From Spinacia oleracea (taxonomy: Eukaryota > Streptophyta > Magnoliopsida > Caryophyllales > Amaranthaceae), in assembly GCF_020520425.1 (NCBI RefSeq), contig NC_079489.1, positions 18,748,001-18,812,000 of the forward strand: a DNA stretch of 64,000 nt, read 5' to 3'. The notes below the pieces were generated by a model. That model saw only the letters and a list, made by a program, of their open reading frames with translations. It did no database searches and was not told the origin of the DNA. Positions 12,210 to 43,336 of this stretch are shown here, one piece after another (within the stretch, counting starts at the first letter, position 1; every line of letters starts with the position of its first letter). Made by a program: the position numbers and the translations under genes.

Positions 12210-12854
12210 ATGTTTCTTTCCAAGTATACCAACATAGGATCCTTCGAGAAACTTGATATAGAAACCCCTGATATTTACGTAAAGAAAATTGTGTTTGGAT
12301 GTGAATATTATGCTAAAGTTCAAGGGCAACCTATCTTAATGAGAAAGGATATCATAGCAGCCACTATCATTAATTGCTTACCTAACAAATTTCCATACCT
12401 AGAACTCAAGGAAAAGTTTAAAGACATGCATTCTGATAATGGAACTCCAAACTTGGCTAAGTATGTGACTTGGGATGGTAGATGGAAATATGACTCAGAA
12501 ATTCTGACCACCATTATTGAGGCGGCAGAAAGTGGGTTTAGAGACAGTAAAATCGTAGGGAGTCATGTTGGAGATTCAGTTACAGAAGAACCTATGGGAA
12601 TAAGTGTAAATAATGACCTAGAGGAAAATGATGTAGCTGTGGAGAATGAGAATGTAGGTGTTGAGGCAGAGAATCCTAACCTAGCGGCTCATGAGCCAAC
12701 CATTGAGATTTCTAGTGATTCAGATGCAGAGCTCGAAAGTGAACAGGAGATGGCAAGTGAGCCTAATCAAGTTGAAGACATGGGAGAAGATGCAAACCAT
12801 GAGGAAGACCCCAATGAAGACCCTGAAGAAGAGTTTGATGATCTTGAGATCTAA
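12210..12854 (+). CDS. Uncharacterised 214-residue acidic-tailed protein of element A, upstream of gag
   Basis: An intact ORF from MFLSKYTNIG to EEEFDDLEI. Residues 1 to about 120 are mixed in character; from about 125 the chain becomes strongly acidic, with many E and D and no predicted membrane span or zinc knuckle. I recognise no family. The start is chosen because element B has the same Met and the same upstream acceptor-like sequence. The B copy (42692-43336) has the same length and differs at eight residues: one in the first 157 (V28M) and seven in the acidic tail. Some Ty3/gypsy lineages, notably Ogre/Tat, carry an extra ORF before gag; whether this one is related is unknown. It is the only ORF intact in both copies, which hints at a function in the element's life cycle, or simply at recent age. 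Confidence 0.75.
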   Translation: MFLSKYTNIGSFEKLDIETPDIYVKKIVFGCEYYAKVQGQPILMRKDIIAATIINCLPNKFPYLELKEKFKDMHSDNGTPNLAKYVTWDGRWKYDSEILTTIIEAAESGFRDSKIVGSHVGDSVTEEPMGISVNNDLEENDVAVENENVGVEAENPNLAAHEPTIEISSDSDAELESEQEMASEPNQVEDMGEDANHEEDPNEDPEEEFDDLEI

Positions 12855-13530
12855 AGTTCACTCCGAAAGCTTTCAGGAGCAATGGATAGGCAAGAGGCCA
12901 CAAATATTTTGAAGTCATAAATAGTTAACTAGCTCTTTTATGTTTTAAAGAATAAGTAGCAAAGCTACAACAGTTTAAGGTTAAAGTTTATTGAAGTTTG
13001 AAATGTTCTTTATTATTTTCAAGGATGTAATAAACCTTTATGGAGTTAGCAATAAAAGTTAAAGTTTTCCAGGGATTGTTCATTATTCTATTTTGAGGAT
13101 TCCATAATACTCCAACCTCTAGGTAGTACGTCATGGATTAATTTTTCTATTGGTTGCATACTCAGTGTGAATTGTGGATCAATTTAATCGCCACAAAAAT
13201 ATTAAATGATTTGAGTACATAAAGGAAGTGAGGGCCAATCTAGACCCTCATGACCAATATGATTCAAAATGTTATGCCTTATGTGCAGTGTGTGAATGTC
13301 TTTCGTGAATTATTGAGGATGATTATTTTTCAATGATTATTGCATCTTGTAGACGATCGTTGCACCTTCGTAAACGATTGTCGTGCCTTCGTAAATGATG
13401 TGTATTAATGTGAACATTGTTGGTTGAGGCGATCTTTATGGTCAATTCAAATATTAAATTGTATGGGATAACGTATAAGTGGTGTTTCAAACCTAAATTA
13501 GAGTATACTAATTGCAGGTCGCGTTCTAGA
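12855..13530 (+). other. Spacer between the upstream ORF and gag in element A
   Basis: No gene. It ends with TACTAATTGCAG (13506-13517), another acceptor-like sequence, 13 bp before the gag start at 13531. It is conserved in element B. Confidence 0.5.
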
Positions 13531-14706
13531 ATGGCTAACAACAATGATCTAGCTGCTGCGATTCGCCTCTTGGCGGAAAAGCTAACCCAGGAAAGAACTG
13601 AGCGCCCCGATTCTGCAGGGGAAATGTTTGAAAGACTTTCTAAGGTTAAGCCACCGTATTTCAAGGGGCAAGCAGATCCAACCTTCCTGGAAAACTGGAT
13701 TAGGGAATTTGAGAAACTATTTGAGGTTGTGAGTTGCCCTAGGAGTATGAGAGTAAGTCAAGCTGTCCTTAATCTGAAAGATGAGGCCAACCTTTGGTGG
13801 AAGGAAAATGGAACTAGACTAAGTGCTGCTGAGGGATTCAATTGAGATTCATTTATTGTTGCATTGAGGGGAAAGTTTTATCCTCCTTTTATGAGAAAGC
13901 AGAAAGCGCAGGAGTTCATCAACCTTAGGATGGGGAATATGACTATTGCTGAATACTATAGCAAGTTTATAGCTTTATCGAGGTTTGCACCTGAGGTTGT
14001 AGCTACGGAGGAGCTGAAAGCTCACAGGTTCGAGCAAGGGCTGACTGATGAAATTCAACGGGGATTAGGTGGGGAAACTTTTACATCCTTAGACATAGTG
14101 TATGGGAGAGCCGCTCATATTTATGGTCTGCAGTCTAGAAGGGACAAGAAAACTGTGGTAATTGGGGAAAAGAGAAAAGATTTTAATACTGGGGGAAACC
14201 AAGAGAACTTTAAAAGGAATAGGAACGGAAATGGAGATGGAAATTTCCAAGGAGGAAACAATCAGGGGCACCACAACAACTCGAACCAATCTAAGAGAGT
14301 GCATCATTGCAAGATGTGCAGTAACAATCACCCTGGTAAGAACTGCAAAGGAGAATTAGTGACCTGCAACTATTGTCAGAAAAGGGGACATAGGGAGTAT
14401 GAGTGCTTCACTAAGCATAGAAAGGAACAAAATAGTAATGGAGGTGGAAACCAAGTGAGGTTTAACCAATCTGGAGGTCAAAATTCAAAGCCTGGAGGGG
14501 CACAAAACAATCAAGAGAACTATAATAAGCCTGCAAATGATAACAATAACCCGAATAAGGCTCCAGGAAAGTTGTACATGATGAATCAGAATGAGGATGA
14601 ACGATCTGCCAATATAGATTCTGGTACTTTTTCTATTAACTCCGCGCAAGTTAAGCATTATTTAATTCGTGGTGACTTATTTTTTTTGTTTCGTCATCTG
14701 TTGTGA
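13531..14706 (+). pseudogene. gag of element A, broken by an in-frame TGA
   Basis: A Ty3/gypsy-type Gag beginning MANNNDLAAAIRLLAEKL. The retrotransposon gag domain includes RVSQAVLNLKDEANLWWKEN and INLRMGNMTIAEYYSKF. Two zinc knuckles follow (CKMCSNNHPGKNC and CNYCQKRGHREYEC, about 14310-14406), between N/G/Q-rich linkers. At 13843-13845 the reading is stopped by TGA where element B has TGG (FNWDSFIV in B), so this is a Trp-to-stop mutation; the frame is otherwise open to 14706. The start is set by homology to B. Gag would package the RNA and form the particle; this copy could make only a 104-residue fragment unless the stop is bypassed. Confidence 0.85.
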
Positions 14707-14738: not shown

Positions 14739-14788
14739 GAATTTTGAGGAAAAAAATTCGTCGAAAGAGAATTTTGGTTAGTTATTCC

Positions 14789-16169
14789 TGAAGGAAATAA
14801 TGCCCTTGGTCCAAGTATGCATTCAATGTTAAGTCTAATAAATGCGGTTCAGTATTAATTAACAAGTTAATAATTCAGTGAGATCAAGTGAGCTGAATGC
14901 CTAGCTAGAGGCCGCTTCAGTTCAAGTGGAATTAATGATATTAATCCACAGCTTACTCTTGACTGAACCCGTAGGGTCACACAAATAGTACGTAAACGGA
15001 TCAAGTATTTAATGGCATTAAAAACTCCATCTATGGATATTCGGAATCGACGGATCTTGGTTTCAGTGGGAGCTGAGATCGTCACAGGCAAGAAATGAAT
15101 ACTCCGGAAACGATGATATTGCCGGAAACGGAAATATGGATCGTATCGGAAATATAAATATTATCCAAGTCGTAGATGTTGCCGGAAACGGAAACATGGT
15201 ACGTATCGGAAAATATTATCGGAAATGGAAATATTGCCGGAATCAGAAATATTGCCGGAAACGGAAATATTGTCAGAAACGGAAATATTATCGGAATCGG
15301 AAAATAATTCCGGAAACGGAAATATTAAATATTTGTTCGAAACGGAAATTAATTCCGGAATCGGAAATATTAAATATTGTTCGTATCGGAAATAAATTCC
15401 GGAATCGGGAATTTAATCGAAAGCGTATCGTACGAATTAGCATCGGACGAGGCTCGCTAGACGAAGGCCCAGCACGAAGCCAGGCCATCGCCCAGCAAGC
15501 CACACGCATCACCAACACACGCCAAAGCCTCGACCAGGCCCAGCGCAAGCCAGGCCCAGCCGAAGCCATGGGCGCGCGCGGACAGTAGCATGGGCCGAGC
15601 GCTGTGAGCTCAGCGTGGGCCGCAAGGCCTGCGCGGGTGTACGGTGCTCGTGCGATGCTCGTGTGCGAATCCTAAAGCTACCGGGATTCGATAAAGGATT
15701 AAATCCTAAACCTATTAGATAAAGTTTATTTAAATATAGTCCTAGCAGGATTCTAATTAAATAAATTAGTATCCTAATAGGATTCCAATTCCTTTTCCAT
15801 ACCTCTATAAATAAGGGCCTAGGGTCATTATTTATACACAACTTTTCAAGTATTCAAAGCTAGGATTTTTAAGCAGAAAAATCAGCCATAACTCTTGCCC
15901 ATTTAGCCGAAAATAAGTAGTACCTTAAGGGCGATTCTAGTTGGTCAATCTTAAGGCGGATCCGGACGTGCTGTGGACTATCTACGGAGGGACGACACTT
16001 GGAGTCCTAAAGACTTGTTCTTGTTCGGTTCGGGCGCAGCTAGGGAAGGCACGCAACAAAGAGTATGCATCTAAACTATGCTAAATGATTATGTGTAAAT
16101 AATATGTTTTCCTGGCTTTATGGTTTTTCCGCATGATTTATGAATTGTCATATGTATCATAACCTAACA
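14789..16169 (+). repeat. 5' LTR of element E
   Basis: 1381 bp. It contains a CGGAAA-type tandem array (15116-15425), a GC-rich block (about 15430-15660) and a TATA box TATAAATA at 15806-15813 followed by AGGGCC, which probably drives element transcription. Confidence 0.94.
15116..15425 (+). repeat. CGGAAAYGGAAATATT minisatellite in the 5' LTR of E
   Basis: Many imperfect units of about 15-18 bp, such as CCGGAAACGGAAATATTG, with spacing variants. Its translation gives a monotonous RKYYRNRK pattern that is not a real protein. The array lies upstream of the TATA box in U3, so it could affect transcription. Copies also lie in the other LTRs of E and D. Confidence 0.85.
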
Positions 16170-16170
16170 G

Positions 16171-16184
16171 TGGTATCACGAGCC
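16171..16184 (+). other. Primer-binding site of element E
   Basis: TGGTATCACGAGCC starts one base after the 5' LTR. It is close to the initiator-Met tRNA 3' end complement (TGGTATCAGAGCC). Element D has the same sequence. Confidence 0.75.
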
Positions 16185-19105
16185 TCTTATTATTTTCATA
16201 ATCTAAATTGCATGAACATGGTTAAATATTACAAATTTGCAAGAATTAAAAGGGGTGATTAATTTTCGTAATTGTTAATTAATTGCAAATAGCGTTTATT
16301 TAATTATACGTACGCAGTTTTTCGGCAGTTTCTTCGTTACTCATCCAAATCGAGTGATTTTTGTGTCAATTCCGCATGTAAAAGGCATTCTAAAATTTTG
16401 ACAAAATTATTATTTTCGGCCGAACCTAGAATTCTCAAATTCGAAGCCTAACTATGACTTTTCGGAGGTTTTAGTTTTTCGAATGCAAAATTTCGTAAAT
16501 TTAAGATGTTAAATTAAATATTTGCGATTCTTGTTGATAAATCTTGAATTTTTGATTGACCTACTGTATATGTTTAACAAGTTTGAATGCCTAACCTTGT
16601 TAATTATGCAATCTAATTTGTAATTATGATTAATTTGTTGAAAATTGGAATAATTTAGAATTAATTTGATTTTCATAATTAGTTATAATTTAATTAGATA
16701 CCTATGATTAAAAACCACCATAAAAATTGTAAATTTATGTTAAATTTTAAATTTTTATGACCTAGACTTGAATCCATGTTAATCGGAAATCAATTGAATA
16801 ATAAATTTTCGATTTTTTCGCCCTAAAATTATGAAATTAATATTATTTATTAATTTGTCATTAATTTTGAATATAAATTTTAATTTTTTATGCGATTCGC
16901 TCATATAACTTGCACGCACAAAGCAATGGACGCTACGTGTTACCCTTAAGGGGTGTTGTATAGTGCGGGCATGTGACGACGAGCAAGGGAGCTCGTCGCC
17001 CATGCGGTACGAATGCAATGAGCAAGGCCATGGTGCACGAGCACAAGGCAGCAGCCCTGCCTTGTGTCGTGGGCTGTGTGCAATGGGCGAATGGGCAAGG
17101 GCGAGAGCAAGGCACGAGCAGTCGCGTGTGGGCAGCAAGCGAGCTGCGCCACAGCGCGCACTGCCTCGCGCAAGCGTGCGGAGCCTCGCGCGCAGCGAGT
17201 GTAAGCTCGCGTGCCACGAGTGCTGCGCCAAGCATCGATCGCTCGCGCGCAGCGAGCGCTGTTGTGCGTACGACGAGCGCTGCGCCCAGCGATGGCGTGC
17301 GAGTGCTATTGTGCGTGCGACGAGCGCTGCGCCCAGCGATGGCGTGCGAGCGCTATTGTGCGTGCGACGAGCGCTGCGCCCAGCGATGGCGTGCGAGTGC
17401 TTGTTGTGCGTGCGACGAGCGCTGCGCCCAGCGATGGCGTGCGGGTGCGTGTTGCGACGTGCGACGAGCGCTGCGCCCAGCGATGGGCTGCGGCAGCATG
17501 CTCGTGCGTCGAGCGCTGGCGCGCGCAGCGAGCACCATGCGTGATGCCTTGCGATGGTGAGCAGCAGCGATGCGAGGCAGCGCATGGGCTGCGCGCACAT
17601 GGCCAGCGATGGCTGTGTGCGTGTGGCCCATGGGCGTGCGTTGCGTGGGATTGTTGCGTTGCGATTAGATCGTTTTGAAATTTTAATTTGAAATTTTCAG
17701 TTTACGTAATTTTAATTAATTTTAAAATTAATAATTTAAATTATTTTCTTGGATTTTAATTTTGAATATTGTAATTATAATAAATTTTATTTATTCTAAT
17801 TATTTTACTAAAATTAAAATCATGAATTAATTTAAATACGACTGAAATTAAATTAAATTTTGTGGATTCAATTATAAATTTATATGAGCTTTAAATTTTA
17901 ATTAAATTTGTAGGTTTCCGGTTAGACTAGAAATACATTTTTATGTTTAAAATTAGTAAAGCATATGAATTTATTAGTTTAAGTGGGAGCCCTTTTTAGT
18001 CATAAACTCTTGATTAGGTCTACAAAACCTTAAGGTTAAAACAACTTGATTAGAATTAATAAGGACTGAATAATTTGTAGATTATTGGTGCCCTTGATTA
18101 ATTGATGCAAATGTTTATGTGATGCATAATGTGTTTTACTAACCAGCTATGTGGGCCATTCATGTTAATGAATGGATGAATGGTATATATTGTATATGTA
18201 CTGTTTTGCAGGTTATGAAGTGACTAGTATGGCCCAAATAGGATAGAAAATATGGTATGCGTACCATTAATTTGAATGTAATTGGTCTAAAGGACCAAAG
18301 TTGTTTTTCAATTCAAATATGGTCTGCGTACCATCAAATAGTTGTAATTAGTTTTAATTATAGCTTATTCTATTTGAAGAAAATGGTGCCTCCCACGGAG
18401 ATTTTCAAGACGGACTTTGAAGTTAAAGCTTCAAGATGAAGTCGGGCTATACTAGATCACATTTATCTTATGCATGTTTTAAGTTATTTATTGCTTTTAA
18501 ATATGTCTTAAAATGCATGAGATCAAAAGCTTGATTATGTTGCATGATTAAGGAGTTTAGTTCACTTAAAATCTAACCAACATAGTAAGAGCCTTAAGTT
18601 CCAAAATTAAAAATTGAGTTAAAAGGTGCCATGCCAAAATATACACTTGCTTGGATATCCTTTACATCAATCTAGTAATAGTTTTCGCTCAGCGAGGTGT
18701 TACTTATTGGTCCTAAAGGGGCAAGGTACACAAATAATTGTGAGTACATGTTAGTTTTGGTGAAACTCAACGATATAAGTAAGGAGTCCTTTTATGTCGT
18801 GGCAAAATCGATAGGTTTACCTAATAAGTTCTTAGACGTACCTATCAACCAAGAATAGTTCCTAGACTATTAGCAAAAGGCTTTTGCTTACCTAAGATGT
18901 TTTAGGATTAAGTCGACAAACTGTGCTTAGTTCTTCAATGATTTTAGGATCTTGGAATCATTTTATTCACACCTGCCGGAACACATAACTTGAATAAAAT
19001 GCTTAATGAACATTGAATTATGCATGTATGCTAGAATTTAAGTTTATTAAGAGAAACTGTGAATGGTTATTTATTTGTTTATTCTTTTCAATTGTATTTT
19101 TAAAT
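16185..19105 (+). other. Long leader of element E
   Basis: About 2.9 kb before gag. Its parts are AT-rich DNA (16185-16900), a very GC- and CpG-rich block (about 16920-17680), AT-rich DNA, then a segment (about 18480-19000) that is also well conserved in element D. Open frames on both strands of the GC-rich block reflect base composition and tandem repetition rather than genes. Confidence 0.7.
17255..17510 (+). repeat. 47-49-bp GC-rich tandem repeat in the leader of E
   Basis: Five units sharing GACGAGCGCTGCGCCCAGCG. The core recurs at about 17281, 17328, 17375, 17423 and 17472, so the periods are 47, 47, 48 and 49 bp. Element D has a different, shorter tandem repeat at the equivalent place. 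Confidence 0.88.
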
Positions 19106-20812
19106 ATGGCAAACAACAATCAAAACATCATCATAGGTTCTGAGCTTATGGTCAAGCTGAACCTGGCAAATTTTCTTGAATGGGAAGCTAAGCTAGTTGA
19201 AATAGTCAAACTCAATGGACTTGAGTATGTACTGTCACATCCCATGCCAAGCTACTATGCCAGAGACATGACCCCTGAGAGATTTTACGCCTGGGATGCG
19301 GATCTCAAAAAGGTTATGAGTCTCATGCTGAACAATATCCCTGATGATTGGGCTAGAAGGTTTGTAGCCTATGAACCTTTTACGCTCATCAAGAATCTGA
19401 GGGATATCTGTCGTGGAAGCACGGAGGACAGGGACCTGAACGTCCATGAGTTGATTGAATCAATGTCTGGTCTAAAGGTTAGTTCTCCCAATAGGTGTTA
19501 TAGGATGGAAGTCCAAGAAACACATGTTCAGCTCCTTCGCACTAAACAGAGGGTAGGCGTCCCACTGAGGTTCCATGTGGATCTTATGCGTTCATACTTT
19601 GATCGCCTAAGTCTACTAGGAACACCAATAAGCGAAAGGATGGCAGTCTCTATCTTGCTCAATTCACTACACAGTGGGTTTGGTCGCTTCAAGCAACTAT
19701 ACCTAAGTGAACCAAGAGAAGAAACAGTTGCAGAATTTGTTCACCTTGTCAGAAAGGCTGAAATAATACTGGACTGTGAAACCAAAGATTTACTCAAGGC
19801 TAAAAAGAGACCATTCAAGAAAAGTGGAAAGTCCAAGGGCAATGCTAAATCAAAGCAGGACAAGTCCACATCAAGCTGTCTTTATTGTGATGGAATAGGC
19901 CATTACAAAAGAGAATGTCCAAAGCTAAAGGAAGATCAGAAGAACGGAACAGTCGTTCCATCTTCAGGTATTTTCGTTATAGACTGTATACTTGCTAATT
20001 CAACTTCTTGGGTATTAGATACAGGTTGTGGCTCACACTTATGTTCCAATCCACAGGGACTAAGAAGAAGTAGAAAGTTAAGCAAGGGTGAAGTCGACCT
20101 ACGAGTGGGAAATGGAGCACGGATTGCTGCATTAGCTGTAGGAACTTACTATTTGTCGTTGCCCTCCGGGCTAGTTTTGGAACTGGAAGAGTGTTTCCAT
20201 GTTCCAAGTCTTACTAAAAACATCATTTCAGTTTCTTGCTTAGATGCTAAGGGATTTTCCTTTTTAATAAAAGACAATAGTTGTTCGTTTTATTTTAAAG
20301 AGATGTTTTATGGATCTGCTAGATTAGTCAATGGACTTTATTTATTAGATCACGACAAACAAGTATATAACATAAATACCAAAAAGGCCAAAAAGGATGA
20401 TTCAGATCTCACCTATCTGTGGCATTGTCGATTAGGCCATATAAACTTGAAACGCTTAGAAAGACTTCAAAAGGAAGGAATTCTAAAACCATTTGACTTA
20501 GAGGATTATGGTAAATGCGAATCATGTTTACTTGGCAAAATGACAAAGCAACCTTTCTCTAAAGTTGGAGAAAGAGCAAATGAACTATTGGGTTTAATCC
20601 ATACAGATGTATGTGGACCAATGAGTACAAATGCTAGAGGTGGTTTCAGCTACTTTATCACTTTCACTGATGACTTCAGTAGATATGGTTATGTCTACCT
20701 AATGAAGCATAAGTCTGAATCCTTTGACAAATTCAAGGAATTTCAGAGTGAAGTAGAGAATCAATTAGGCAAGAAGATTAAGGCACTGCGGTCTGATAGA
20801 GGCGGTGAATAA
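19106..20812 (+). CDS. E gag-protease-integrase (5' part of a frameshifted copia polyprotein)
   Basis: The start at 19106 (MANNNQNIIIGSEL) is preferred over an upstream in-frame ATG at 19013, because the added 31 residues look like translated leader. Domains in order: gag; a zinc knuckle CLYCDGIGHYKREC (about 19880-19920); aspartic protease with VLDTGCGSHLC (about 20010-20042); GAG-pre-integrase with LWHCRLGHINLKRL (about 20420-20460); and the integrase core with HTDVCGP, FTDDFSR and LRSDRGGE. Reading stops at TAA (20810-20812) because one A is inserted at about 20810; the correct frame continues into the next entry. The intact parent protein would cut, integrate and package the element. Domain assignment is firm; the copia lineage is not assigned. 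Confidence 0.9.
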   Translation: MANNNQNIIIGSELMVKLNLANFLEWEAKLVEIVKLNGLEYVLSHPMPSYYARDMTPERFYAWDADLKKVMSLMLNNIPDDWARRFVAYEPFTLIKNLRDICRGSTEDRDLNVHELIESMSGLKVSSPNRCYRMEVQETHVQLLRTKQRVGVPLRFHVDLMRSYFDRLSLLGTPISERMAVSILLNSLHSGFGRFKQLYLSEPREETVAEFVHLVRKAEIILDCETKDLLKAKKRPFKKSGKSKGNAKSKQDKSTSSCLYCDGIGHYKRECPKLKEDQKNGTVVPSSGIFVIDCILANSTSWVLDTGCGSHLCSNPQGLRRSRKLSKGEVDLRVGNGARIAALAVGTYYLSLPSGLVLELEECFHVPSLTKNIISVSCLDAKGFSFLIKDNSCSFYFKEMFYGSARLVNGLYLLDHDKQVYNINTKKAKKDDSDLTYLWHCRLGHINLKRLERLQKEGILKPFDLEDYGKCESCLLGKMTKQPFSKVGERANELLGLIHTDVCGPMSTNARGGFSYFITFTDDFSRYGYVYLMKHKSESFDKFKEFQSEVENQLGKKIKALRSDRGGE

Positions 20813-22883
20813 TCTGAGCTATGAATTTGATGACCATCTGAAAGAATGTGGAATTCTATCAGAATTGACTCCTCCTGGAACACCACAATGGAACGGTGTG
20901 TCGGAACGGAGGAACAGAACCTTGCTAGACATGGTCAGGTCAATGATGGGTCAGGCCAAACTTCCATTAGAATTTTGGGGACATGCAATAAATACAGCTG
21001 CACTCACTATAAATAGAGCTCCGTCTAAAGCTGTCGAAAAGACTCCATACGAATTATGGTTTGGAAAGCCTCCAAATGTGTCTTTTCTTAAGATTTGGGG
21101 ATGTGAAGTATACATCAAACGATTAATTTCAGAGAAACTTCATCCAAAATCTGACAAATGTATCCTTGTGGGCTATCCAAAGGAAACAAAGGGGTATTAC
21201 TTCTACAATACATCTGAGAACAAGGTGTTTGTTGCTCGAGATGGTGTCTTTTTGGAGAAAGATCACATTTCCAAAATGACAAGTGGGAGAAAAGTAGACC
21301 TCGAAGAAATTCGAGTCGAACAACAAACTCTAGAGAATGCTCAAGATGACATTCAGGATGAAACTCAGAGATCTTTAGAAGAATCTGGTGAGAATCATGG
21401 TCAATCTAGAAATGTTACCCCGCGTAGATCGCAAAGATATAGATCTCAACCGGAAAGGTACTTAGGTATTTTGACGAACGAGAGCTATGACGTTCTATTA
21501 CTTGAAAGTGATGAACCTGCAACTTACAAACAAGCTATGACGAGCCCTAGCTCCAAGCAATGGCAAGAAGCCATGCAATCTGAATTAGACTCCATGTCTG
21601 AAAACCAAGTATGGGATTTGGTCGATTTGCCAGATGGCTACCAAGCCATTGGAAGCAAATGGGTTTTCAAACTGAAAAAGGACAAGGATGGGAAACTTGA
21701 AGTTTTCAAAGCTAGATTGGTTGCAAAAGGTTACAGGCAAGTCCACGGTGTGGATTACGATGAAACCTTTTCACCAGTTGCAATGCTAAAGTCTATTCGG
21801 ATAATGTTAGCAATCGCTGCATATTACGATTACGAAATATGGCAGATGGATGTCAAAACTGCTTTCTTAAACGGTGTTTTAACAGAAACTGTGTTTATGA
21901 CACGGCCTGAAGGTTTTGAGGATCCAAAGAATGCTAAAAAGGTATGCAAGCTAAAGAAGTCAATCTACGGATTGAAGCAGGCATCCAGGAGCTGGAATAT
22001 ACGTTTTGATGAAGCAGTCAGTGACTTTGGTTTCATCAAGAACGCAGACGAATCTTGTGTATACAAGAAGGTCAGTGGGAGCAAAATTGCTTTCCTAGTA
22101 TTATATGTCGATGACATATTACTTATCGGAAATGACATTCCTATGTTGAACTCTGTCAAGATTTGGCTTGGGAAATGTTTTTCGATGAAAGATTTAGGAG
22201 AAGCACAGTACATATTGGGCATCAAGATTTACAGAGATAGATCTAAAAGGATGATTGGACTTAGTCAAAGCACTTATATCAATAAGGTGCTTGATAGGTT
22301 CAAGATGGCAGACTCCAAGCGAGGCTACCTACCCATGTCTCATGGAATAACTCTAAGCAAGACTCAGTGCCCAAAAACACTTGATGAGCGTAGACGAATG
22401 AATGGGATTCCATATGCATCATTGATTGGTTCAATAATGTATGCTATGATATGTACACGCCCGGATGTTGCGTACGCACTCAGTGCTACGAGAAGATACC
22501 AGTCAGACCCAGGAGAGGCACATTGGACTGCTGCCAAGAATATTCTGAAGTACCTGAAAAGGCACAAAGATGACTTCCTGGTCTATGGTGGAGATGATGA
22601 ATTAATTGTTAAAGGCTATACGGACGCAAGTTTCCAAACCGACAAAGATGATTTCAGATCACAGTCTGGGTTTGTCTTCTGCCTCAACGGGGGTGCAGTA
22701 AGCTGGAAAAGTGCTAAGCAAAGCACCATTGCGGATTCTACAACTGAAGCGGAGTACATTGCTGCACATGAAGCAGCAAAGGAAGCTATATGGCTAAGGA
22801 AGTTCATAGGTGAACTTGGTGTAGTCCCCTCCATTAAAGGACCAATAGCCCTGTATTGTGATAATAACGGAGCTATTGCATAG
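20805..22883 (+). CDS. E integrase C-terminus, reverse transcriptase and RNase H (3' part of the frameshifted polyprotein)
   Basis: This continues the polyprotein in the shifted frame. The integrase catalytic Glu region is PQWNGVSERRNRTLLDM. Reverse transcriptase (RVT_2 type) starts at GSKWVFKLKKDKDG, with QMDVKTAFLNG and the active-site motif YVDDILLIG (about 22104-22130). RNase H has YTDASFQTDKDD and STTEAEYIAAHEA. A TAG at 22881-22883 interrupts the RNase H; the same frame is open again from 22884 to a TAG at 23106-23108 and reads a normal copia C-terminus (AKEPRHHQRVKHVLRRFHLL). The stop is probably a CAG-to-TAG change. With the upstream frameshift this makes the copy defective. Confidence 0.9.
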   Translation: MNNLSYEFDDHLKECGILSELTPPGTPQWNGVSERRNRTLLDMVRSMMGQAKLPLEFWGHAINTAALTINRAPSKAVEKTPYELWFGKPPNVSFLKIWGCEVYIKRLISEKLHPKSDKCILVGYPKETKGYYFYNTSENKVFVARDGVFLEKDHISKMTSGRKVDLEEIRVEQQTLENAQDDIQDETQRSLEESGENHGQSRNVTPRRSQRYRSQPERYLGILTNESYDVLLLESDEPATYKQAMTSPSSKQWQEAMQSELDSMSENQVWDLVDLPDGYQAIGSKWVFKLKKDKDGKLEVFKARLVAKGYRQVHGVDYDETFSPVAMLKSIRIMLAIAAYYDYEIWQMDVKTAFLNGVLTETVFMTRPEGFEDPKNAKKVCKLKKSIYGLKQASRSWNIRFDEAVSDFGFIKNADESCVYKKVSGSKIAFLVLYVDDILLIGNDIPMLNSVKIWLGKCFSMKDLGEAQYILGIKIYRDRSKRMIGLSQSTYINKVLDRFKMADSKRGYLPMSHGITLSKTQCPKTLDERRRMNGIPYASLIGSIMYAMICTRPDVAYALSATRRYQSDPGEAHWTAAKNILKYLKRHKDDFLVYGGDDELIVKGYTDASFQTDKDDFRSQSGFVFCLNGGAVSWKSAKQSTIADSTTEAEYIAAHEAAKEAIWLRKFIGELGVVPSIKGPIALYCDNNGAIA

Positions 22884-23108
22884 GCAAAGGAGCCTAGACA
22901 CCACCAGAGAGTCAAGCATGTACTTCGTAGATTTCACCTTCTACGAGAGTTCGTTGAAAGAAAAGAAGTCGAGATAAACAAGATTGGAACTGATGACAAC
23001 ATATCAGATCCAGTCGCAGGCGAAGCACAACTCGCACACTGCAGTTATGGGAATCAAGCATATTGGAGAATGGCTTTGATATCCCTGTTTAATGTTTTAA
23101 AGTTTTAG
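22884..23108 (+). pseudogene. C-terminal tail of the E polyprotein after the nonsense codon
   Basis: In frame with the preceding ORF. It contains TDDNISDPV, a form of the conserved NIADPLTK motif at the end of copia RNase H, and ends at TAG 23106-23108. Confidence 0.8.
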
Positions 23109-23944
23109 AGTTTAAATCTTTGTAAAACATTATTGGTTAATCATTCACAATAAATGAAAAGAATTCATTTTTCCATTTAATTTGTGGTTTATTAAATGAT
23201 GAGTCCCTTCAATTTGACAATATATTCAAGATAGACTGTCAGGACCAGTCCTGTGACTAAGAAATGTCTATCAAGTGAACTTGAATGTCAAAGGTTGAAA
23301 ATGGTCCCTAGTCGGAGTTTTCTATAAAATTGGACGCATAGAAAACGTTAGACGATTAGAATGCAAGATGACTAGTAGTTCTGTTTCTTGAACTATGTGG
23401 GCATGGCAATGTCATAATCATTTGCATAGATACTTACTTTGGGAAGACTAGTATCGGACAAGACCTATGAAACTTTACTGTAAGAGATGAAAATCTGTCA
23501 TAAGTAAATTTCATTAAAATTATTAGACATTAAATCCTCAATACCTGAGTGATTTGAGATTACTTGTTTGAGAACTGATTACTTTGACGTTGACCAACCG
23601 TCGCACCGTAAAAGGAGGCTATAAAGGCAACGCTCAGGTAATCACCTATCAAACGAAGTCTAATCTCAAGATCGCAAGATTGGGATTGTCCTCCCATAAA
23701 TCGGGATGAGATGCTTAAAAGTTGTACAAGGCCACTCGGAGAGCTAGAAACTGTGAAATGCATGGCCGTGCTCGGATGAATCATAGGCTATGATTATCTG
23801 TTTATTTGATCAGTTGAACTCTGAAACCTAGGAACACCTCTGGACATAATAAGGATGACAACTCTTACCTTATGTTCAAGAGCAAGCATCGAGCGACAAA
23901 GGAATTAGGAAATGCACACTTGTCCCTAAGGACAAGTGGGAGAC
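23109..23944 (+). other. 3' untranslated region and polypurine tract of element E
   Basis: This 836-bp non-coding stretch ends in AAGGACAAGTGGGAGAC (about 23928-23944), a purine-rich primer for plus-strand synthesis directly before the 3' LTR. It is conserved in element D at 49459-50230 although D's coding part is decayed, which suggests it matters in cis. Confidence 0.7.
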
Positions 23945-25325
23945 TGAAGGAAATAATGCCCTTGGTCCAAGTATGCATTCAATGTTAAGTCTAATAAATG
24001 CGGTTCAGTATTAATTAACAAGTTAATAATTCAGTGAGATCAAGTGAGCTGAATGCCTAGCTAGAGGCCGCTTCAGTTCAAGTGGAATTAATGATATTAA
24101 TCCACAGCTTACTCTTGACTGAACCCGTAGGGTCACACAAATAGTACGTAAACGGATCAAGTATTTAATGGCATTAAATACTCTATCTATGGATATTCGG
24201 AATCGACGGATCTTGGTTTCAGTGGGAGCTGAGATCGTCACAGGCAAGAAATGAATACTCCGAAAACGATGATATTGCCGGAAACGGAAATATGGATCGT
24301 ATCGGAAATATAAATATTATCCAAGTCGTAGATGTTGCCGGAAACGGAAACATGGTACGTATCGGAAAATATTATCGGAAATGGAAATATTGCCGGAGTC
24401 GGAAATATTGCCGGAAACGGAAATATTGTCAGAAACGGAAATATTATCGGAATCGGAAAATAATTCCGGAAACGGAAATATTAAATATTTGTTCGAAACG
24501 GAAATTAATTCCGGAATCGGAAATATTAAATATTGTTCGTATCGGAAATAAATTCCGGAATCGGGAATTTAATCGAAAGCGTATCGTACGAATTAGCATC
24601 GGACGAGGCTCGCTAGACGAAGGCCCAGCACGAAGCCAGGCCATCGCCCAGCAAGCCACACGCATCACCAACACACGCCAAAGCCTCGACCAGGCCCAGC
24701 GCAAGCCAGGCCCAGCCGAAGCCATGGGCGCGCGCGGACAGTAGCATGGGCCGAGCGCTGTGCGCTCAGCGTGGGCCGCAAGGCCTGCGCGGGTGTACGG
24801 TGCTCGTGCGATGCTCGTGTGCGAATCCTAAAGCTATCGGGATTCGATAAAAGATTAAATCCTAAACCTATTAGATAAAGTTTATTTAAATAGAGTCCTA
24901 GCAGGATTCTAATTAAATAAATTAGTATCCTAATAGGATTCCAATTCCTTTTCCATACCTATATAAATAAGGGCCTAGGGTCATTATTTATACACAACTT
25001 TTCAAGTATTCAAAGCTAGGATTTTTAAGCAGAAAAATCAGCCATAACTCTTGCCCATTTAGCCGAAAATAAGTAGTACCTTAAGGGCGATTCTAGTTGG
25101 TCAATCTTAAGGCGGATCCGGACGTGCCGTGGACTATCTACGGAGGGACGACACTTGGAGTCCTAAAGACTTGTTCTTGTTCGGTTCGGGCGCAGCTAGG
25201 GAAGGCACGCAACAAAGAGTATGCATCTAAACTATGCTAAATGATTATGTGTAAATAATATGTTTTCCTGGCTTTATGGTTTTTCCGCATGATTTATGAA
25301 TTGTCATATGTATCATAACCTAACA
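23945..25325 (+). repeat. 3' LTR of element E
   Basis: 1381 bp, colinear with the 5' LTR. It contains the CGGAAA array (about 24272-24581) and a TATA box at 24962-24969. Confidence 0.94.
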
Positions 25326-25330
25326 ATTCC

Positions 25331-25653
25331 CTGAGGTGAGTTACGAGGGCGTAACTCGTTTTCTTTAAGGGGGTAGAATGCGATAGAAATTCGCGCTTTT
25401 TACCTATTTTATGGCATTTTTATGCATTTTATTGCTTATTTTTACAAAATTTACAAGTTGATGCCAAGAAAATAGATTCTCCGCATAAAAAAAAAGGTGT
25501 TCATGAGTAACACAAACAGCTTTGAGTTTGCAAAAGAGTGCACATAGGTGGCACAAGTACTTCTCTAGTAATAATAAGTTAAAAGCTTTTGGGGAAAATG
25601 TGGGAAATTTCATGTCAAGTTTCCGGACGAAACTTCTTTTAAGAGGGGTAGAT
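25331..25653 (+). other. Tail of element A between gag and the 3' LTR, with polypurine tract
   Basis: This resumes element A after the E insertion. It is non-coding and ends in CTTTTAAGAGGGGTAGAT (25636-25653), a purine-rich tract touching the 3' LTR. Element B keeps the same tract. Confidence 0.7.
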
Positions 25654-34447: not shown

Positions 34448-34452
34448 TTCAC

Positions 34453-37458: not shown

Positions 37459-37463
37459 ATAAC

Positions 37464-40442
37464 TGTAACACCCCGACAATTCTCTCTTTTATAAAACAAC
37501 ATTTTAATATAAAACGTAGAGAATTATCAAGGCATTATCGCCCGTGTGAAAACGTAACAGCTTATTCAGAATTTTGCAGCGGAAAACATAAAACTAACTT
37601 TAGGTTTATAAATAATCGATTACATAGTTAATCCCAAAACCAATCAACGAAATAAGATCAACTAACAAGTTTAAAGTCCAATTAAACAACCCAAGTAAAC
37701 TTAGCAAATCAAAACTAAATACAAGCTCTCTATTCCCGATCCCAATGATGCAACATCTTCAAACCTGCAGGACTTTTGAGTCTTTACTCTTTAGTCTTCC
37801 TAGAAGTAGTAGGAGTACCCGTCGGATGGACAATGCTTATTGATCCTTAGAGACTGCTCACCAAAGATTGGGTCATCACATGATCAATAAGGCATAGCCA
37901 TGATCAACATGCACAAGCAAAAGCACGTAATCAGCAAAGCTGAGTACTACATACTAAATCAATAATAATCCTAACATGATTCTACTAAACGAACAACCCT
38001 AACATGGTACTAAATAAAACATAAGCAAGGATAATCAAGATATACTGACTTGAAGACTATACTTGACTGAACTAGACCTTTGTATCATTAACATTATTTT
38101 AATTGAAATAGTCAATGGACTGAGTTGTCTACTAGAAACTTATTCTTCTTCACTAAGGAAGACGAGGTACGGGCGCGACTCCGTAAACCCCAATGACCTG
38201 CGGTATCGAGGGACTTTTGAATAAAATAGAACCGGTGATCAATCCGGCCCCAAAAAAAGCCATAGGCGACCCATGACCCCAACTCTTGATTGTCCGTCAC
38301 TTTAGACGTGCACAGTCTAAAGCTATTGCTACTCAGTTTCACTTTACATGACTTAACTTTAATACTTGGTTATGACTCATCAAACGTAAATATTATATTC
38401 AACAAGTAAACACAACTTCTTTTATCTTTGAATTAAACCAGTGATCACAACATTCAACCAAGAGCCAATTCCAACTATTTTAATCCTCCCTTTATCCATA
38501 TTTTAAAAACCTTTATTAGGTATAAGGTTCAACTACCAAACAAGGTCCTCGGCCCTTATAAAGTAGTGAAAATCTAAAGAGGAACAACGATCAATAAAGA
38601 TCTAAACCAATATTAAATACTATAAACTTCCCCAAAACCAACATGCTTGCATCAATATTCCATGATAACATGATTCAATTCTTATAAATAAAGTTCTATG
38701 TTCAACGCATTAATTCAACGACATTAAACATGAATCTCCAACATAAACAAGTTCATAAATATATTCATCATATTCTCAATACAACACACATCCAAGCACA
38801 CGGTATGTACGTACCTTGTGTAAACAAACTGATAGGCCACTTTAACGAATTCAAAAGTCGCCCATAAAGAATTCTCCGCCTAAAATAATCAAGAAACGTA
38901 CCCAAATCAATTCCTAATAATTTACAGCAACACTAACGTACTCTAAACACATCCTAAACATATTTAGAACATTCCCCAATATCGAAACTTAATTAATTAA
39001 CTTTCTAGAATAGTGATTAATTCCCTAACGGCCCCTAATTATCATAACCTCCAATAAAGCATCCCTTTTTAAAATTCCAGCAATATAAAATAGTTTAAAA
39101 CTTCGCCAAACCATAATTAACATGCTTAAAATCATAAAAACAATAACCTTAATAACTCATAAACATCATACCATGATTTTAAAACTATTAAAACCTTAAA
39201 AATTCATGCTTTAATAATTAAAAATCATTATTGCAATGCAATTGCATAATCTGAAGATTGAATTTATTATTTAAACATAATATATAATCTGAAAATATAA
39301 TTTAATCATAATAACTTAAAATTTTCATTCAATAATCATGAATTAAATCACTGAACTAATTAAAACCCTAACTTATATATTAATCAACCAAAAACTGAAA
39401 ATAATTAATTTATAACATCAACACCAAATCTGAAAATTATAATTTAACTATAAAGATCAATAAATTTAATTCAAGAACATGATTTAAATTATCATACTAT
39501 AATTAAAATAATTAGTTACTTAGGGTTTAAGAAATAACCAATGAAAGGAGGGGATGAGTGCTGGCCGGCGGACAAGGGCGGCGGCAGTAGATATGGAGGC
39601 GCGGCCACGGAGGATGGACACCGCAGATGGTGGTACAGGTGGGTCGCGACGGCGTTGGTTGCTTGCGAAAGAAGGGAACCTAGCAACGAGCAAAAGGCGA
39701 AAAGAGGAGAGACAAACGAGAGGGAGACGGAAGACGAGCCTCGCCGGCGGCAGTGCAGCGCGACGGGGGAGATGGGCGGTGGTGCGGCGACTTTGGTGGC
39801 TGTGCAAGAAAACAGGACATTAAGGAGGAGAGAAATACGCAAGAAGAAGTAAGAAACAGAGAAGGAAGAGGACGACGAAGAAGACGGTCGAGGGAGAGGG
39901 GTAACTTACCGGCGGCGGCAGAGATGGAGGTCCGGCGGCTGACAGAAGCAACGAACGTGAAGGAGAGAGAAACGGCAGTGTGAGGGAGGAGGAAAATTTT
40001 GAGGGTTCTTATTTCTTTACGTGAATAGTGAAGGGGTGTTGGTTCACGTGAATTAGAGGTAGGAAAGGAGGATTTGTTTGGGCTAATGGTTTGGGCTTTG
40101 CAAAATGGGCTAGAATTAGGATTTGAGTTTTAGTGTTTGAATCAAAAATCGAATAGGATAGTTTTTTCCGAATTCAACGGGTTTTCCTAATTCAAATTCT
40201 TTTCAACATAAAATTCTAAAATTATTCTTGATTGCACAAACGTTAAAATATTTAGAATATATTTATATAGAATTAAATATACATTAATTATATAAATATA
40301 ATAAAGTTCAAAATAATTAAATATTTAGAACGTACTTAAAATTAATTATATATTTATTACTAAAATTCATAAATTCTATTTAAATATAAATAATATACGT
40401 TAAAATATATTAATAAAATTTATAAATTTACGGGGGATTACA
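37464..40442 (-). repeat. 3' LTR of element B
   Basis: 2979 bp; in element orientation it runs TGTAATCCCCCG to GGGTGTTACA. It carries a 55-bp segment (37770-37824) that is missing from the other LTR of B and from both LTRs of A. Open frames at 39516-39983 lie in the GC-rich part and are not genes. Confidence 0.92.
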
Positions 40443-40460
40443 ATCTACCCCTCTTAAAAG
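40443..40460 (-). other. Polypurine tract of element B
   Basis: Read on minus, CTTTTAAGAGGGGTAGAT abuts the 3' LTR. It is identical to the tract of element A at 25636-25653. Confidence 0.75.
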
Positions 40461-40812
40461 AAGTTTCGTCCCGAAACTTGACACGAAATTTCCCACATTT
40501 TCCCCAAAAACTTTTAACTTATTCTTACTAGAGAAGTACTTGTGCCGCCTATGTGCACTCTTTTGCCAACTCAAAGCTATTTGTGTTACTCATGAACACC
40601 TTTTCTTATGCGGAGAGTCTATTTGCTTTGGCTAAACTTGTAAAATTTGCTAAAATAAGCATACAAATGCATAAAAATGCCATAAAATAGGTAAGAAGCG
40701 CGAATTTCTATCGCATTCTACCCCCTTAAAGAAAACGAGTTACGCCCTCGTAACTCACCTCAGGGAATAGCTAACCAAAATTCTCTTTCGACGAATTCTA
40801 TTCTCAAAATTC
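40461..40812 (-). other. Non-coding tail of element B between the protease relic and the polypurine tract
   Basis: No gene. It matches the corresponding tail of element A, including the sequence around 40730-40760 that reads ACGAGTTACGCCCTCGTAAC. Confidence 0.6.
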
Positions 40813-40875
40813 CTATTTCATTAAAACTACTAACTTTAGACTTTTCACAACAGATGACGAAACAAAAGAACAAGT
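40813..40875 (-). pseudogene. Retropepsin relic after gag in element B
   Basis: One frame reads TCSFVSSSVVKSLKLVVLMK and a stop. This resembles the sequence that follows the catalytic DSGA of Ty3/gypsy proteases (ATHSFVSS type). It is offset from the gag frame. It is the clearest sign that the family derives from an element with a full pol. The assignment rests on a short match. Confidence 0.6.
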
Positions 40876-42024
40876 CACCCACGAACTAAATAATGCTTAA
40901 CTTGTGCGGAGTTAATAGAAAAAGTACCAGAATCTATATCGGCTGATCGTTCATCCTCATTCTGATTCATCATGTACAACTTTCCTGGAGCCTTATTCGG
41001 GTTGTTGTTATCATTTGCAGGCTTATTATAGTTCTCTTGGTTGTTTTGTGCCCCTCCAGGCTTTGAATTTTGACCTCCAGATTGGTTAAACCTCACTTGG
41101 TTTCCACCTCCATTACTATTTTGTTCCTTTCTGTGCTTAGTGAAGCACTCATACTCCCTATGTCCCCTTTTCTGACAATAGTTGCAGGTCACTAATTCTC
41201 CTTTGCAGTTCTTACCAGGGTGATTGTTACTGCACATCTTGCAATGATGCACTCTCTCAGACGGGTTCGAGTTGTTGTGGTGCCCCTGATTGTTTCCTTC
41301 TTGGAAATTTCCATTTCCATTCCCATTTCCGTTTCTATTCCTTTTAAAGTTTTCTTGGTTACCCCCAGCATTAAAATCCTTTCTCTTTTCCCCAATTACC
41401 ACAGTTTTCTTGTCCCTTCTAGACTGTAGCCCATAAATATGAGCAGCTCTCCCATACACTATGTCTAAGGAAGTAAAAGTTTCTCCACCTAATCCCAATT
41501 GAATTTCATCAGTCAGCCCTTGCTCAAACCTTTGAGCCTTTAGCTCCTCAGTAGCTACCACCTTAGGCGCAAACCTCGACAAAGCTATAAACTTGCTATA
41601 GTATTCAGCAATAGTCATATTCCCCATCCTAAGGTTGATAAACTCCTGCGCTTTCTGCTTTCTCATAAGGAGGATAAAACTTCCCCCTCAAGGCAACAAT
41701 AAATGAATCCCAATTGAATCCCTCGGCAGCACTTAGTCTATTTCCATTTTCTTTCCACCACAAATCGGCTTCATCTTTTAGATATAGGACAGCTTGACTT
41801 ACTCTCATACTCCCAGGGCAACTCACAGCCTCAAATAGTTTCTCAAATTCCCTAATCCAGGTTTCCAGGAAGGTTGGATCTGCTTGCCCCTTAAAATACG
41901 GTGGCTTAACCTTAGAAAGTCTTTCAAACATTTCCCCTGCAGAATCAGGGCGCTCAGTTCTCTCATGAGTTAGCTTTTCCGCCAAGAGGCGAATCGCAGC
42001 AGCTAGATTATTGTTGTTGGCCAT
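40875..42024 (-). pseudogene. gag of element B, broken by a 2-base deletion
   Basis: Starts MANNNNLAAAIRLLAEKLTH at 42024. The first frame runs to 41629 and the second from about 41666 to 40875. At about 41667 copy B reads CCTCCTTATGAG where A reads CCTCCTTTTATGAG, so two T bases are missing and the frame shifts (FYPPYEKAES in B, FYPPFMRKQKAQ in A). Downstream it has both zinc knuckles (CKMCSNNHPGKNC and CNYCQKRGHREYEC) and ends HYLVRG. Copy B has Trp (FNWDSF) where A has the stop, so the two gag genes died by different mutations. Confidence 0.88.
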
Positions 42025-42691
42025 TCTAGAACGCGACCTGCAATTAGTATACTCTACTTTAGGTTTGAAACATCACTTATACGTTATCCCATACAATTTA
42101 ATACTTGAATTGACCATAAAGATCGCCTCAACCAACAATGTTCACATTAATACACATCTTTTACGAATGCACGACAATCGTTTACGAAGGTGCAACGATC
42201 GTCTATAAGATGCAATAATCATTGAAAAATAATCATCCTTAATAATTCACGAAAGACATTTACACACTACACATAAGGCATAACATTTTGAATCATATTG
42301 GTTATGAGGGTCTAGATTGGCCCTCACTTCCTTTATGTACTCAAATCATTTAATATTTTTGTGGCAATTGAATTGATCCACAATTCACACTGAGTATGCA
42401 AACAATTAATCCATGACGTACTACCTAGAGGTTGGAGTATTATGGAATCCTCAAAATAGAATAAAGAACAATTCCTTGAAAACTTTAACTTTTATTGCTA
42501 ACTCCATAAAGGTTTATTACATCCTTGAAAATAATAAAGAACATTTCAAACTTCAATAAACTTAAACCTTAAACAGTTGTAGCTTTGCTACTTATTCTTT
42601 AAAACATAAAAGAGCTAATTAACTATTTATGACTTCAAAATATTTGTGGCCTCTTGCCTATTCATTGCTCCTGAAACTTGCAGAGTGAAAT
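42025..42691 (-). other. Spacer between the upstream ORF and gag in element B
   Basis: No gene. Just before the gag start the minus strand reads TATACTAATTGCAG (acceptor AG at 42038-42039), as in element A. Confidence 0.5.
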
Positions 42692-43336
42692 TTAGATCTC
42701 AAGATCATCGAACTCTTCTTCAGGTTCTTCATCGGGGTCTTCCTCAAGGTTTGCATCTTCACCCATGTCTTCATCTTGATTAGGCTCACTTGCCATCTCC
42801 TGTTCACTTTCGAGCTCTACATCCGAATCACTAGAGACCTCAATGGTTGGCTCATGAGCCGCTGGGTTAGGATTCTCTGCCTCAACACCTACATTCTCAT
42901 TCTCCACAGCTACATCATTTTCCTCTAGGTCATTATTTACACTTATTCCCATAGGTTCTTCTGTAACTGAATCTCCAACATGACTCCCTACGATTTTACT
43001 GTCTCTAAACCCACTTTCTGCCGCCTCAATAATGGTGGTCAGAATTTCTGAGTCATATTTCCATCTACCATCCCAAGTCACATACTTAGCCAAGTTTGGA
43101 GTTCCATTATCAGAATGCATGTCTTTAAACTTTTCCTTGAGTTCTAGGTATGGAAATTTGTTAGGTAAGCAATTAATGATAGTGGCTGCTATGATATCCT
43201 TTCTCATTAAGATAGGTTGCCCTTGAACTTTAGCATAATATTCACATCCAAACATGATTTTCTTCACGTAAATATCAGGGGTTTCTATATCAAGTTTCTC
43301 GAAGGATCCTATGTTGGTATACTTGGAAAGAAACAT
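42692..43336 (-). CDS. Uncharacterised 214-residue acidic-tailed protein of element B
   Basis: Intact homologue of 12210-12854: same length, same start (MFLSKYTNIG) and same end (EEEFDDLEI). The frame is open for a further 42 codons upstream, to a Met at 43462, but that part is not open in element A and precedes the conserved acceptor-like site, so 43336 is chosen as the start. Eight residues differ from A: V28M in the body and seven in the acidic tail after residue 157, including L158P. No family recognised. The pattern of a fixed body and a drifting acidic tail suggests that the body is under constraint. Confidence 0.75.
   Translation of the reverse strand: MFLSKYTNIGSFEKLDIETPDIYVKKIMFGCEYYAKVQGQPILMRKDIIAATIINCLPNKFPYLELKEKFKDMHSDNGTPNLAKYVTWDGRWKYDSEILTTIIEAAESGFRDSKIVGSHVGDSVTEEPMGISVNNDLEENDVAVENENVGVEAENPNPAAHEPTIEVSSDSDVELESEQEMASEPNQDEDMGEDANLEEDPDEEPEEEFDDLEI

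What the first reader, a model, noticed from the sequence alone, without database searches (positions are those of the whole stretch)
12210..43336. Unknown acidic-tailed 214-residue ORF conserved in both members of a pol-less LTR element family
Elements A and B each carry, before gag, an intact ORF of the same length and the same start and end (12210-12854 plus, 42692-43336 minus). Only one of the first 157 residues differs, while seven of the last 57 do. In both copies gag is broken and pol is absent, yet this ORF is intact. It matches no family I recognise. An extra ORF before gag is known in Ogre/Tat-type elements, but that does not explain a pol-less element keeping one. It may act in trans or in RNA handling, or may be intact only because the elements are young.
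Basis: partly seen in the sequence, partly recalled or inferred. Interest (0 to 1): 0.8.

Follow-up and report, generated by a model that had tools for sequence, protein, structure and literature searches.

The report
Accessory ORF kept by crippled retrotransposons
A small, otherwise unknown protein gene in spinach jumping elements has stayed readable, and its main part looks mildly protected from change, even in relatives whose usual capsid and enzyme genes are dead, which suggests that the elements gain something from it.

Summary
Observation confirmed. Elements A and B in this spinach window are full-length LTR insertions (TSDs, LTRs about 99% alike), each with an intact 214-codon ORF before a broken gag and no pol. 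In 18 genome copies chosen by the neighbouring spacer the ORF is intact in 14, gag in 4. In 29 copies chosen by a dead gag (subfamily C, with dead pol remnants) the ORF is intact in 16 and open but start-less in 5. A second gag-dead type (E) keeps it in both copies fetched. A third (F) is the reverse: gag open, ORF deleted or not found. Variants shared between copies show fewer amino-acid changes than neutral in residues 1-157 (24 N:24 S; neutral about 2.6:1; dead gag 46:24), not in the acidic tail (31:13). So the core seems moderately constrained; some tests are borderline and recombination moves the ORF between subfamilies. No homologue outside spinach, domain or fold was found. The nearest known kind is the 5' additional ORF of Tekay-clade Ty3/gypsy elements; clade membership could not be tested because pol is dead. 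Most likely a trans-shared accessory factor acting on element expression; function is inferred.

The parts
8459..11440 (+). Element A 5' LTR (TSD TAAAA at 8454-8458)
   Evidence: 98.8% identical to 25654-28636; TSD
12201..12209 (+). Splice-acceptor-like TTTCAG|G ending at 12202, 7 nt before the ORF's ATG (inferred function)
   Evidence: AG kept at this place in 42 of 43 copies; no transcript data
12210..12854 (+). ORF of element A, 214 aa: core 1-157, acidic tail 158-214
   Evidence: constraint
12855..13530 (+). Spacer between ORF and gag; AATAAA at 13029 and 13051 (poly(A)-like, inferred), acceptor-like TACTAATTGCAG|G ending 13517, 13 nt before gag ATG
   Evidence: sequence; an AATAAA lies between 45 nt before and 225 nt after the usual stop in 41 of 43 copies
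13531..14706 (+). gag of element A (capsid and zinc-knuckle parts), interrupted by a premature stop
   Evidence: Retrotrans_gag PF03732 above cut-off on the downstream piece
14789..25325 (+). Nested Copia-type element inside A (TSD ATTCC), not part of the finding
   Evidence: LTRs 99.2% identical; TSD read
25326..25653 (+). Remaining 3' internal part of A with purine-rich tract before the 3' LTR
25654..28636 (+). Element A 3' LTR
37464..40442 (-). Element B 3' LTR
   Evidence: largest stretch 99.1% identical to 44385-47003; TSD ATAAC
40875..42024 (-). gag of element B, broken by frameshift between its two pieces
42692..43336 (-). ORF of element B, 214 aa
44078..47001 (-). Element B 5' LTR

Best explanation
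The ORF is a genuine accessory gene of a Ty3/gypsy family in spinach, of the kind described as 5' additional ORF in Tekay elements. Supported here: it lies in sense between 5' LTR and gag, its core shows moderate purifying selection, and it stays open in most copies of recently inserted subfamilies whose gag and pol are dead, while another subfamily keeps gag and has lost it. Inferred: it is made from a short, probably spliced LTR-driven transcript (acceptor-like site before its ATG, poly(A)-like signals after its stop), works in trans within a community of complementing non-autonomous subfamilies, and acts in the nucleus on element expression or RNA fate (for example escape from silencing) rather than in capsid building or reverse transcription. 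The strongly acidic tail (24 D/E, 0 K/R in 57 residues), with a motif like a SUMO-interacting site (IEISSDSD, recalled), would be a low-specificity contact arm, which fits a tail that keeps frame and charge but not sequence.
For: ORF intact in 14 of 18 spacer-chosen copies, gag in 4 of 18; scaling by length alone (by hand) would predict about 0.43, seen 0.78. Intact in 16 of 29 and open without start codon in 5 of 29 copies chosen by the dead gag of C. Those 29 have gag cut short because the query spans that deletion; in addition 25 of 25 aligned share one in-frame stop. L031 and L032 have LTRs 99.8% and 99.5% alike over the stretch held, L082 99.9%: they moved recently with dead gag-pol. Core shared variants 24 N:24 S against neutral 2.57:1 and dead gag 46 N + 2 stops:24 S; ORF core pN/pS 0.23 in C against 0.53 for dead gag by the same method. 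Synonymous sites vary as much as or more than the flanks, so RNA constraint alone does not explain the open frame. F: ORF deleted in L083 and L087, no ORF match in L085 and L086, gag open in the fetched part in 4 of 4.
Against: Constraint is moderate and partly borderline: core shared variants against dead-gag shared variants p 0.087 for all 45 copies, 0.0375 for C alone; private against shared p 0.018 for all but 0.128 for the spacer set alone; the bootstrap range of the core (0.14-0.38 in C, 0.22-0.62 in the spacer set) overlaps that of dead gag (0.33-0.85). Within the five D copies ORF pN/pS is 0.74 (0.38-1.78). Recombination moves the ORF between subfamilies (C1-C2 ORF pS 0.16 against dead-gag pS 0.07), so selection may have acted in other, gag-bearing elements and the ORF in C may be a recent import. 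Group C3 (5 copies) shares a lost start codon and still spread. Neither protein nor transcript was observed; no fold was obtained (pLDDT 42.5 and 35); no autonomous partner was found.
Confidence: 0.45

Rival explanations
1. Hitch-hiking relic: the ORF once served an autonomous ancestor and survives because it sits in the 5' half (U5, primer site, leader) that every mobilised RNA must keep and that is exchanged by template switching with elements where it is still selected. In gag-dead subfamilies it does nothing.
For: The conserved block shared by A and L031 runs from U5 through the ORF to about 13060 (86-98% per 200 bp from 11059) and then falls to 38-76%. ORF types cross subfamily borders. 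C3 spread without a start codon; F spread without the ORF.
Against: F and C3 show that elements spread without the ORF, yet 21 of 29 gag-dead C copies keep it open. C-set shared core variants are depleted in amino-acid changes (16 N:20 S, p 0.00058 against neutral).
Confidence: 0.28
2. Gag or packaging cofactor: the acidic protein binds the basic nucleocapsid part of Gag supplied by other subfamilies and favours packaging of the RNA it came from.
For: Tail net charge -24; subfamilies with and without gag coexist.
Against: The core has no net positive charge (15 K/R against 16 D/E in 1-112); gag-bearing F elements spread without it; no structural hint.
Confidence: 0.15
3. A cis-acting RNA element (splicing, dimerisation, packaging) that happens to be open.
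For: The 3' flank just after the ORF is unusually conserved in the spacer-chosen set (0.033 against core pS 0.063 and tail pS 0.11); in the C set it is not (0.058).
Against: Synonymous sites vary as much as or more than the flanks and the core is depleted in nonsynonymous shared variants; the tail indels seen in more than one copy keep the frame.
Confidence: 0.07
4. Intact only because the copies are young.
For: LTR pairs are 98.8-99.9% identical in the five elements compared.
Against: Gag in the same 18 copies is intact in only 4 while the ORF is in 14. Dead-gag divergence between C groups is 3-15%; a rough neutral simulation gives a chance of an intact ORF of 0.24 to 0.61 at 2% per lineage and 0.06 to 0.38 at 4% (with and without indels), so this evidence is suggestive, not strong.
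Confidence: 0.05

Closest known systems
5' additional ORF (5'aORF) of Tekay-clade Ty3/gypsy elements (sunflower Tekay group 2; maize Tekay, sorghum Sb7, rice Retrosat-2, RIRE3, RIRE8; PMC11728184, passages and section 9 read)
   Same: Sense ORF between 5' LTR and gag, no known domain, biased composition, conserved through the family (500 of 523 in sunflower), no amino-acid likeness between sunflower and grasses
   Different: 214 aa against 402 aa in sunflower; acidic and without a basic cluster seen by eye; here it persists in elements with dead gag and pol. That paper's likeness of the maize and sorghum proteins to a DRBM protein (TM 0.35-0.37) could not be tested here
RLG_Quinta / RLG_Cereba of wheat (PMC11302176, passages read)
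   Same: Non-autonomous chromovirus derivative coding GAG plus a domain of unknown function, proposed to share proteins with an autonomous partner
   Different: Quinta's DUF1 is in the same ORF as GAG; here the unknown protein is a separate ORF and outlives gag
RLG_Sabrina_SA of wheat (PMC9744471, passages read)
   Same: Semi-autonomous: codes GAG and protease, lacks RT and INT; close to subfamily F here
   Different: No accessory ORF in the passages read
TR-GAG elements (Chaparro 2015, not held; described in PMC8704663, passages read)
   Same: LTR element with gag and no pol; one shown to transpose in Arabidopsis
   Different: TR-GAGs have a single ORF, gag; here two, and in C and E gag itself is dead
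VANC anti-silencing proteins of VANDAL DNA transposons (PMC10398659, abstract and outline read)
   Same: Accessory TE protein that benefits specific related copies; working model for the inferred role only
   Different: Encoded by Arabidopsis VANDAL elements, no sequence relation shown; sequence-specific loss of silent marks not tested here

Membership tests
Tekay 5'aORF | Sense ORF between 5' LTR and gag | tested here: met
Tekay 5'aORF | Present and open in most members of the element family | tested here: met
   14 of 18 spacer-chosen; 16 of 29 C copies, 21 of 29 if start-less open frames count; deleted or not found in 4 of 4 F copies
Tekay 5'aORF | Element belongs to the Tekay clade by RT/INT tree and has a type II chromodomain | tested here: inconclusive
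   gag is Ty3-like (Ty3_capsid PF19259 E 2.1e-08 on L071), but pol is absent in A/B and dead in the C, E and F copies read; only fragments. No intact partner found: one search scored 40 of 3322 candidates and the three fetched for it have broken pol
Tekay 5'aORF | Predicted nuclear localisation | not tested
   no localisation predictor available; no basic cluster seen by eye
TR-GAG | Only ORF between LTRs is gag | tested here: not met
   second intact ORF
Semi-autonomous chromovirus derivative (Quinta/Sabrina type) | Intact gag, no RT or INT, termini and PBS shared with an autonomous partner | tested here: inconclusive
   gag open in some copies, no RT/INT in A/B; partner not identified
VANC-like anti-silencing factor | Loss of silent chromatin marks on related copies when expressed | not testable with these tools
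   needs plants

The most novel reading that the evidence does not exclude
In large retrotransposon subfamilies an accessory protein of unknown fold is the only gene still maintained: each subfamily keeps a different part (ORF only; ORF plus gag; gag-protease only), parts are swapped by recombination, and the ORF protein, perhaps a silencing antagonist, is what lets gag- and pol-dead elements keep multiplying. A multipartite, division-of-labour retrotransposon community.
Probability: 0.3. Interest if true: 0.78.

Novelty: new variant of a known kind. Interest (0 to 1): 0.55.

Why it matters
Additional ORFs are common in plant LTR elements and most have no recognisable domain (314 groups in Ty3/gypsy; 21.4% of the sequences matched a domain; PMC6317226, passages read). 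Here is a natural experiment: copies that have lost gag and pol but kept the additional ORF, copies with the reverse, and copies with both, in one genome. That separates the ORF's own contribution from that of gag-pol and makes the open question 'do additional ORFs do anything?' directly testable.

Tried and rejected
Identity of the protein: Pfam, PDB by sequence (the CroV588 hit is a sum of weak repeats, best single i-Evalue 7.1, rejected), 5.8-billion-protein search with one sequence and with an 11-row alignment (only one cluster, a spinach protein), AlphaFold2 on 3 near-identical rows and on residues 1-124 alone (too poor), Foldseek on the poor model (best E 2.1, meaningless). A guessed likeness to Copia gag was dropped: no search supported it.

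Autonomous partner: DNA search with the dead pol of L031 scored 40 of 3322 candidates; L082, L083 and L084 were fetched from its list and have broken pol, so no partner was seen; a diverged partner would not appear among the best 40. Of the L031 pol pieces sent to Pfam only one matched (RVT_1, E 0.0024, below its cut-off); the 138-aa RT-like and 43-aa integrase-like pieces matched nothing and are read by eye.

Which rows were used. Copies returned by the ORF search itself (150 scored of 3295 candidates, 4 of 150 with an inside stop) were not used for the intactness counts because they are ranked by ORF likeness; 29 of the 30 fetched entered only the first pN/pS (L017 dropped). Spacer-chosen: of ranks 2-24, 18 were fetched; the 5 skipped are three whose ORF lists as open, one listed with a stop (L017) and one tandem mate. 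Dead-gag-chosen: of 40 places, 29 were fetched; of the 11 skipped, 9 have an open ORF and 2 are tandem mates not looked at. The skipping therefore works against the ORF. For one search L066, L069, L075 and L078 were left out of the alignments (deleted or badly broken ORF); they count as broken in the 29. L069 shows no stop at the shared gag place in its match.
Full report
What is there. The window lies in a spinach genome (the only protein relative found is a spinach protein; window place). Elements A (8459-28636, +) and B (37464-47001, -) are complete LTR insertions with 5-bp target duplications and LTR pairs 98.8% and about 99.1% identical. Each carries, between the 5' LTR and gag, an intact ORF of 214 codons. 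A also contains a Copia-type element at 14789-25325. Per 200 bp, A and B are 89-100% alike from 11459 on (5' leader to gag) but 52-59% in part of the LTR (8859-9658). A's gag has a premature stop, B's a frameshift; the capsid and zinc-knuckle parts are recognisable (Ty3_capsid on the gag of relative L071). No pol follows.

Is it a gene? Two sets of copies were chosen by other parts of the element. (i) Spacer-chosen: one search scored 40 places of 985 candidates; 18 were fetched (L033-L050). ORF intact from ATG to the usual stop in 14 of 18; broken in L033, L034, L035, L044. Gag open to at least codon 379 in 4 of 18 (L036, L042, L044, L045). Gag is about 1140 nt and the ORF 645 nt; scaling by length (by hand) would predict the ORF intact in about 0.43, against 0.78 seen. 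(ii) Dead-gag-chosen (subfamily C): one search scored 40 places of 2195; 20 were fetched and 9 more, 29 in all. ORF intact in 16 (L052-L057, L059, L061, L063-L065, L067, L076, L077, L079, L081), open but without start codon in 5 (L068, L070, L073, L074, L080), broken in 8 (L051, L058, L060, L062, L066, L069, L075, L078). The skipped places (listed under Tried and rejected) would mostly have added intact ORFs. All 29 match L031 through the place where its gag is cut short, as the query spans it; besides, 25 of 25 aligned copies share one in-frame stop, so gag died before most of C split into its groups. L031 also holds remnants read by eye as RT and integrase in broken frames (one piece RVT_1 E 0.0024, below cut-off, the others without a Pfam match); L032 matches it along that stretch. 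Their LTRs are 99.8% and 99.5% identical over the stretch held, so C was mobilised recently, presumably by proteins from elsewhere.

Selection. Pairwise Nei-Gojobori pN/pS (45 copies: A, B, 18 and 25): core 0.37 (bootstrap 0.22-0.62) within the spacer set with A and B, 0.23 (0.14-0.38) within C, 0.26 (0.16-0.42) between; tail 0.31-0.45. The same measure on the dead gag of the C copies gives 0.53 (0.33-0.85), so the neutral value here is nearer 0.5 than 1 and the ORF core in C is about half of it; the ranges overlap. A second test splits variants into private (mostly after insertion) and shared (mostly inherited through the element lineage). Core: private 69 N + 1 stop: 29 S, shared 24 N: 24 S, with about 2.6 N per S expected from composition with an assumed transition bias; private against shared p 0.018, shared against neutral p 0.0018. 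Dead gag shared 46 N + 2 stops: 24 S; ORF core against dead gag p 0.087 (all) and 0.0375 (C only). For the spacer set alone private against shared is p 0.128. Tail: shared 31:13, neutral-like (C only 14:11, p 0.071). So the core is moderately constrained, with some tests borderline, and the tail is not clearly constrained for sequence, although its recurring length changes keep the frame and it stays acidic. The capsid part of gag in the A/B type (12 copies) is constrained at least as strongly (0.17). Within the five D copies the ORF gives 0.74 (0.38-1.78), against the reading but imprecise.

A community of partial elements. D (L034, L040, L042, L047, L049; L071 and L072 are longer fetches of L042 and L040): the one profiled, L072, is 93-98% like A except for a capsid patch of 80-89%; pS between the two gag types is 0.45. 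E (L082, L084, both with the ORF already listed) has dead gag with lesions other than those of C, dead pol and an intact ORF; of 11 places that by match pattern look like E, 9 have an open ORF in the list and 2 do not appear there, which shows nothing. F (L083, L085-L087) is the reverse: gag open in the fetched part in 4 of 4, in L083 running on into a protease motif (recognised by eye); the ORF is deleted in L083 and L087 (99.7% alike to each other) and no ORF match was found in the fetched part of L085 and L086. Gag loss with ORF retention thus seems to have happened at least twice, and ORF loss with gag retention at least once. Recombination is plain: L031 and L032 are 48-59% alike over 600 bp of the LTR while much of their internal region is 97-100%, and ORF types cross the borders of the C groups.

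How it may work (inferred). An acceptor-like AG stands before the ORF's ATG in 42 of 43 copies, an AATAAA lies near or after its stop in 41 of 43, and an acceptor-like site precedes gag; a short spliced ORF mRNA and a separate gag mRNA are plausible but no RNA data were available. The protein has a near-neutral core (net -1 in 1-112) and a tail of net -24, so it is unlikely to bind RNA through charge. My preferred model is a nuclear factor that raises expression or blunts silencing of the family and is shared in trans. That F and C3 spread without it says that it is not needed by every copy, which fits trans supply and equally fits dispensability.

Place among known things. Extra ORFs before gag are known in Tekay chromoviruses (PMC11728184, passages and section 9): sense orientation, unknown domain, conserved in 500 of 523 sunflower elements, no amino-acid likeness between sunflower and grasses. 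The survey PMC6317226 (passages and section 9) counted only ORFs of at least 250 codons, so a 214-codon ORF would fall below its cut. Spinach repeat papers were listed; in PMC6337768 a term search found no 'ORF' and 'open reading frame' only for gag and pol. Non-autonomous elements with gag plus an unknown domain are known (RLG_Quinta, PMC11302176), as are GAG-protease elements (RLG_Sabrina_SA, PMC9744471) and TR-GAGs (PMC8704663). In the seven answered paper searches (listings and the passages named above) I saw no report of an additional ORF outliving both gag and pol in amplified subfamilies; the library lacks most subscription papers, and Steinbauerova 2011 and Chaparro 2015 are not held. 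Hence: a new variant of a known kind, with Tekay membership untested.

Noticed in passing
Genome places: At least 15 tandem arrays (32 of 150 ORF places, counted by eye) with ORFs 6.5-7.4 kb apart on one strand, i.e. LTR-internal-LTR-internal-LTR units; similar mutual-LTR arrays are described for sunflower elements (PMC11728184 passages).
   Followed up: partly
window 8859-9658 and L031/L032 LTRs: The upstream part of the LTR is hypervariable: 48-59% alike over 600 bp between L031 and L032, which are 97-100% alike in much of the internal region; this suggests promoter shuffling.
   Followed up: partly
L042/L071, L040/L072, L034, L047, L049: Capsid part of gag of a diverged type (80-89% alike in L072) inside otherwise A-like elements.
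   Followed up: partly
L051, L068, L070, L073, L074 and, separately, L080: Lost start codon of the ORF, shared by a small amplified group, with the frame otherwise open in four of these five and in L080.
   Followed up: yes
window 12855-13045: Noncoding stretch after the ORF is unusually conserved in spacer-chosen copies (3.3% mean difference; 5.8% in C), perhaps a 3'-end or packaging signal.
   Followed up: no
window 15136-15588 and 24292-24744: A repetitive 150-aa ORF lies inside both LTRs of the nested Copia-type element.
   Followed up: no
window 17002-17678: Tandem repeats give overlapping long ORFs on both strands inside the nested Copia-type element; probably compositional.
   Followed up: no
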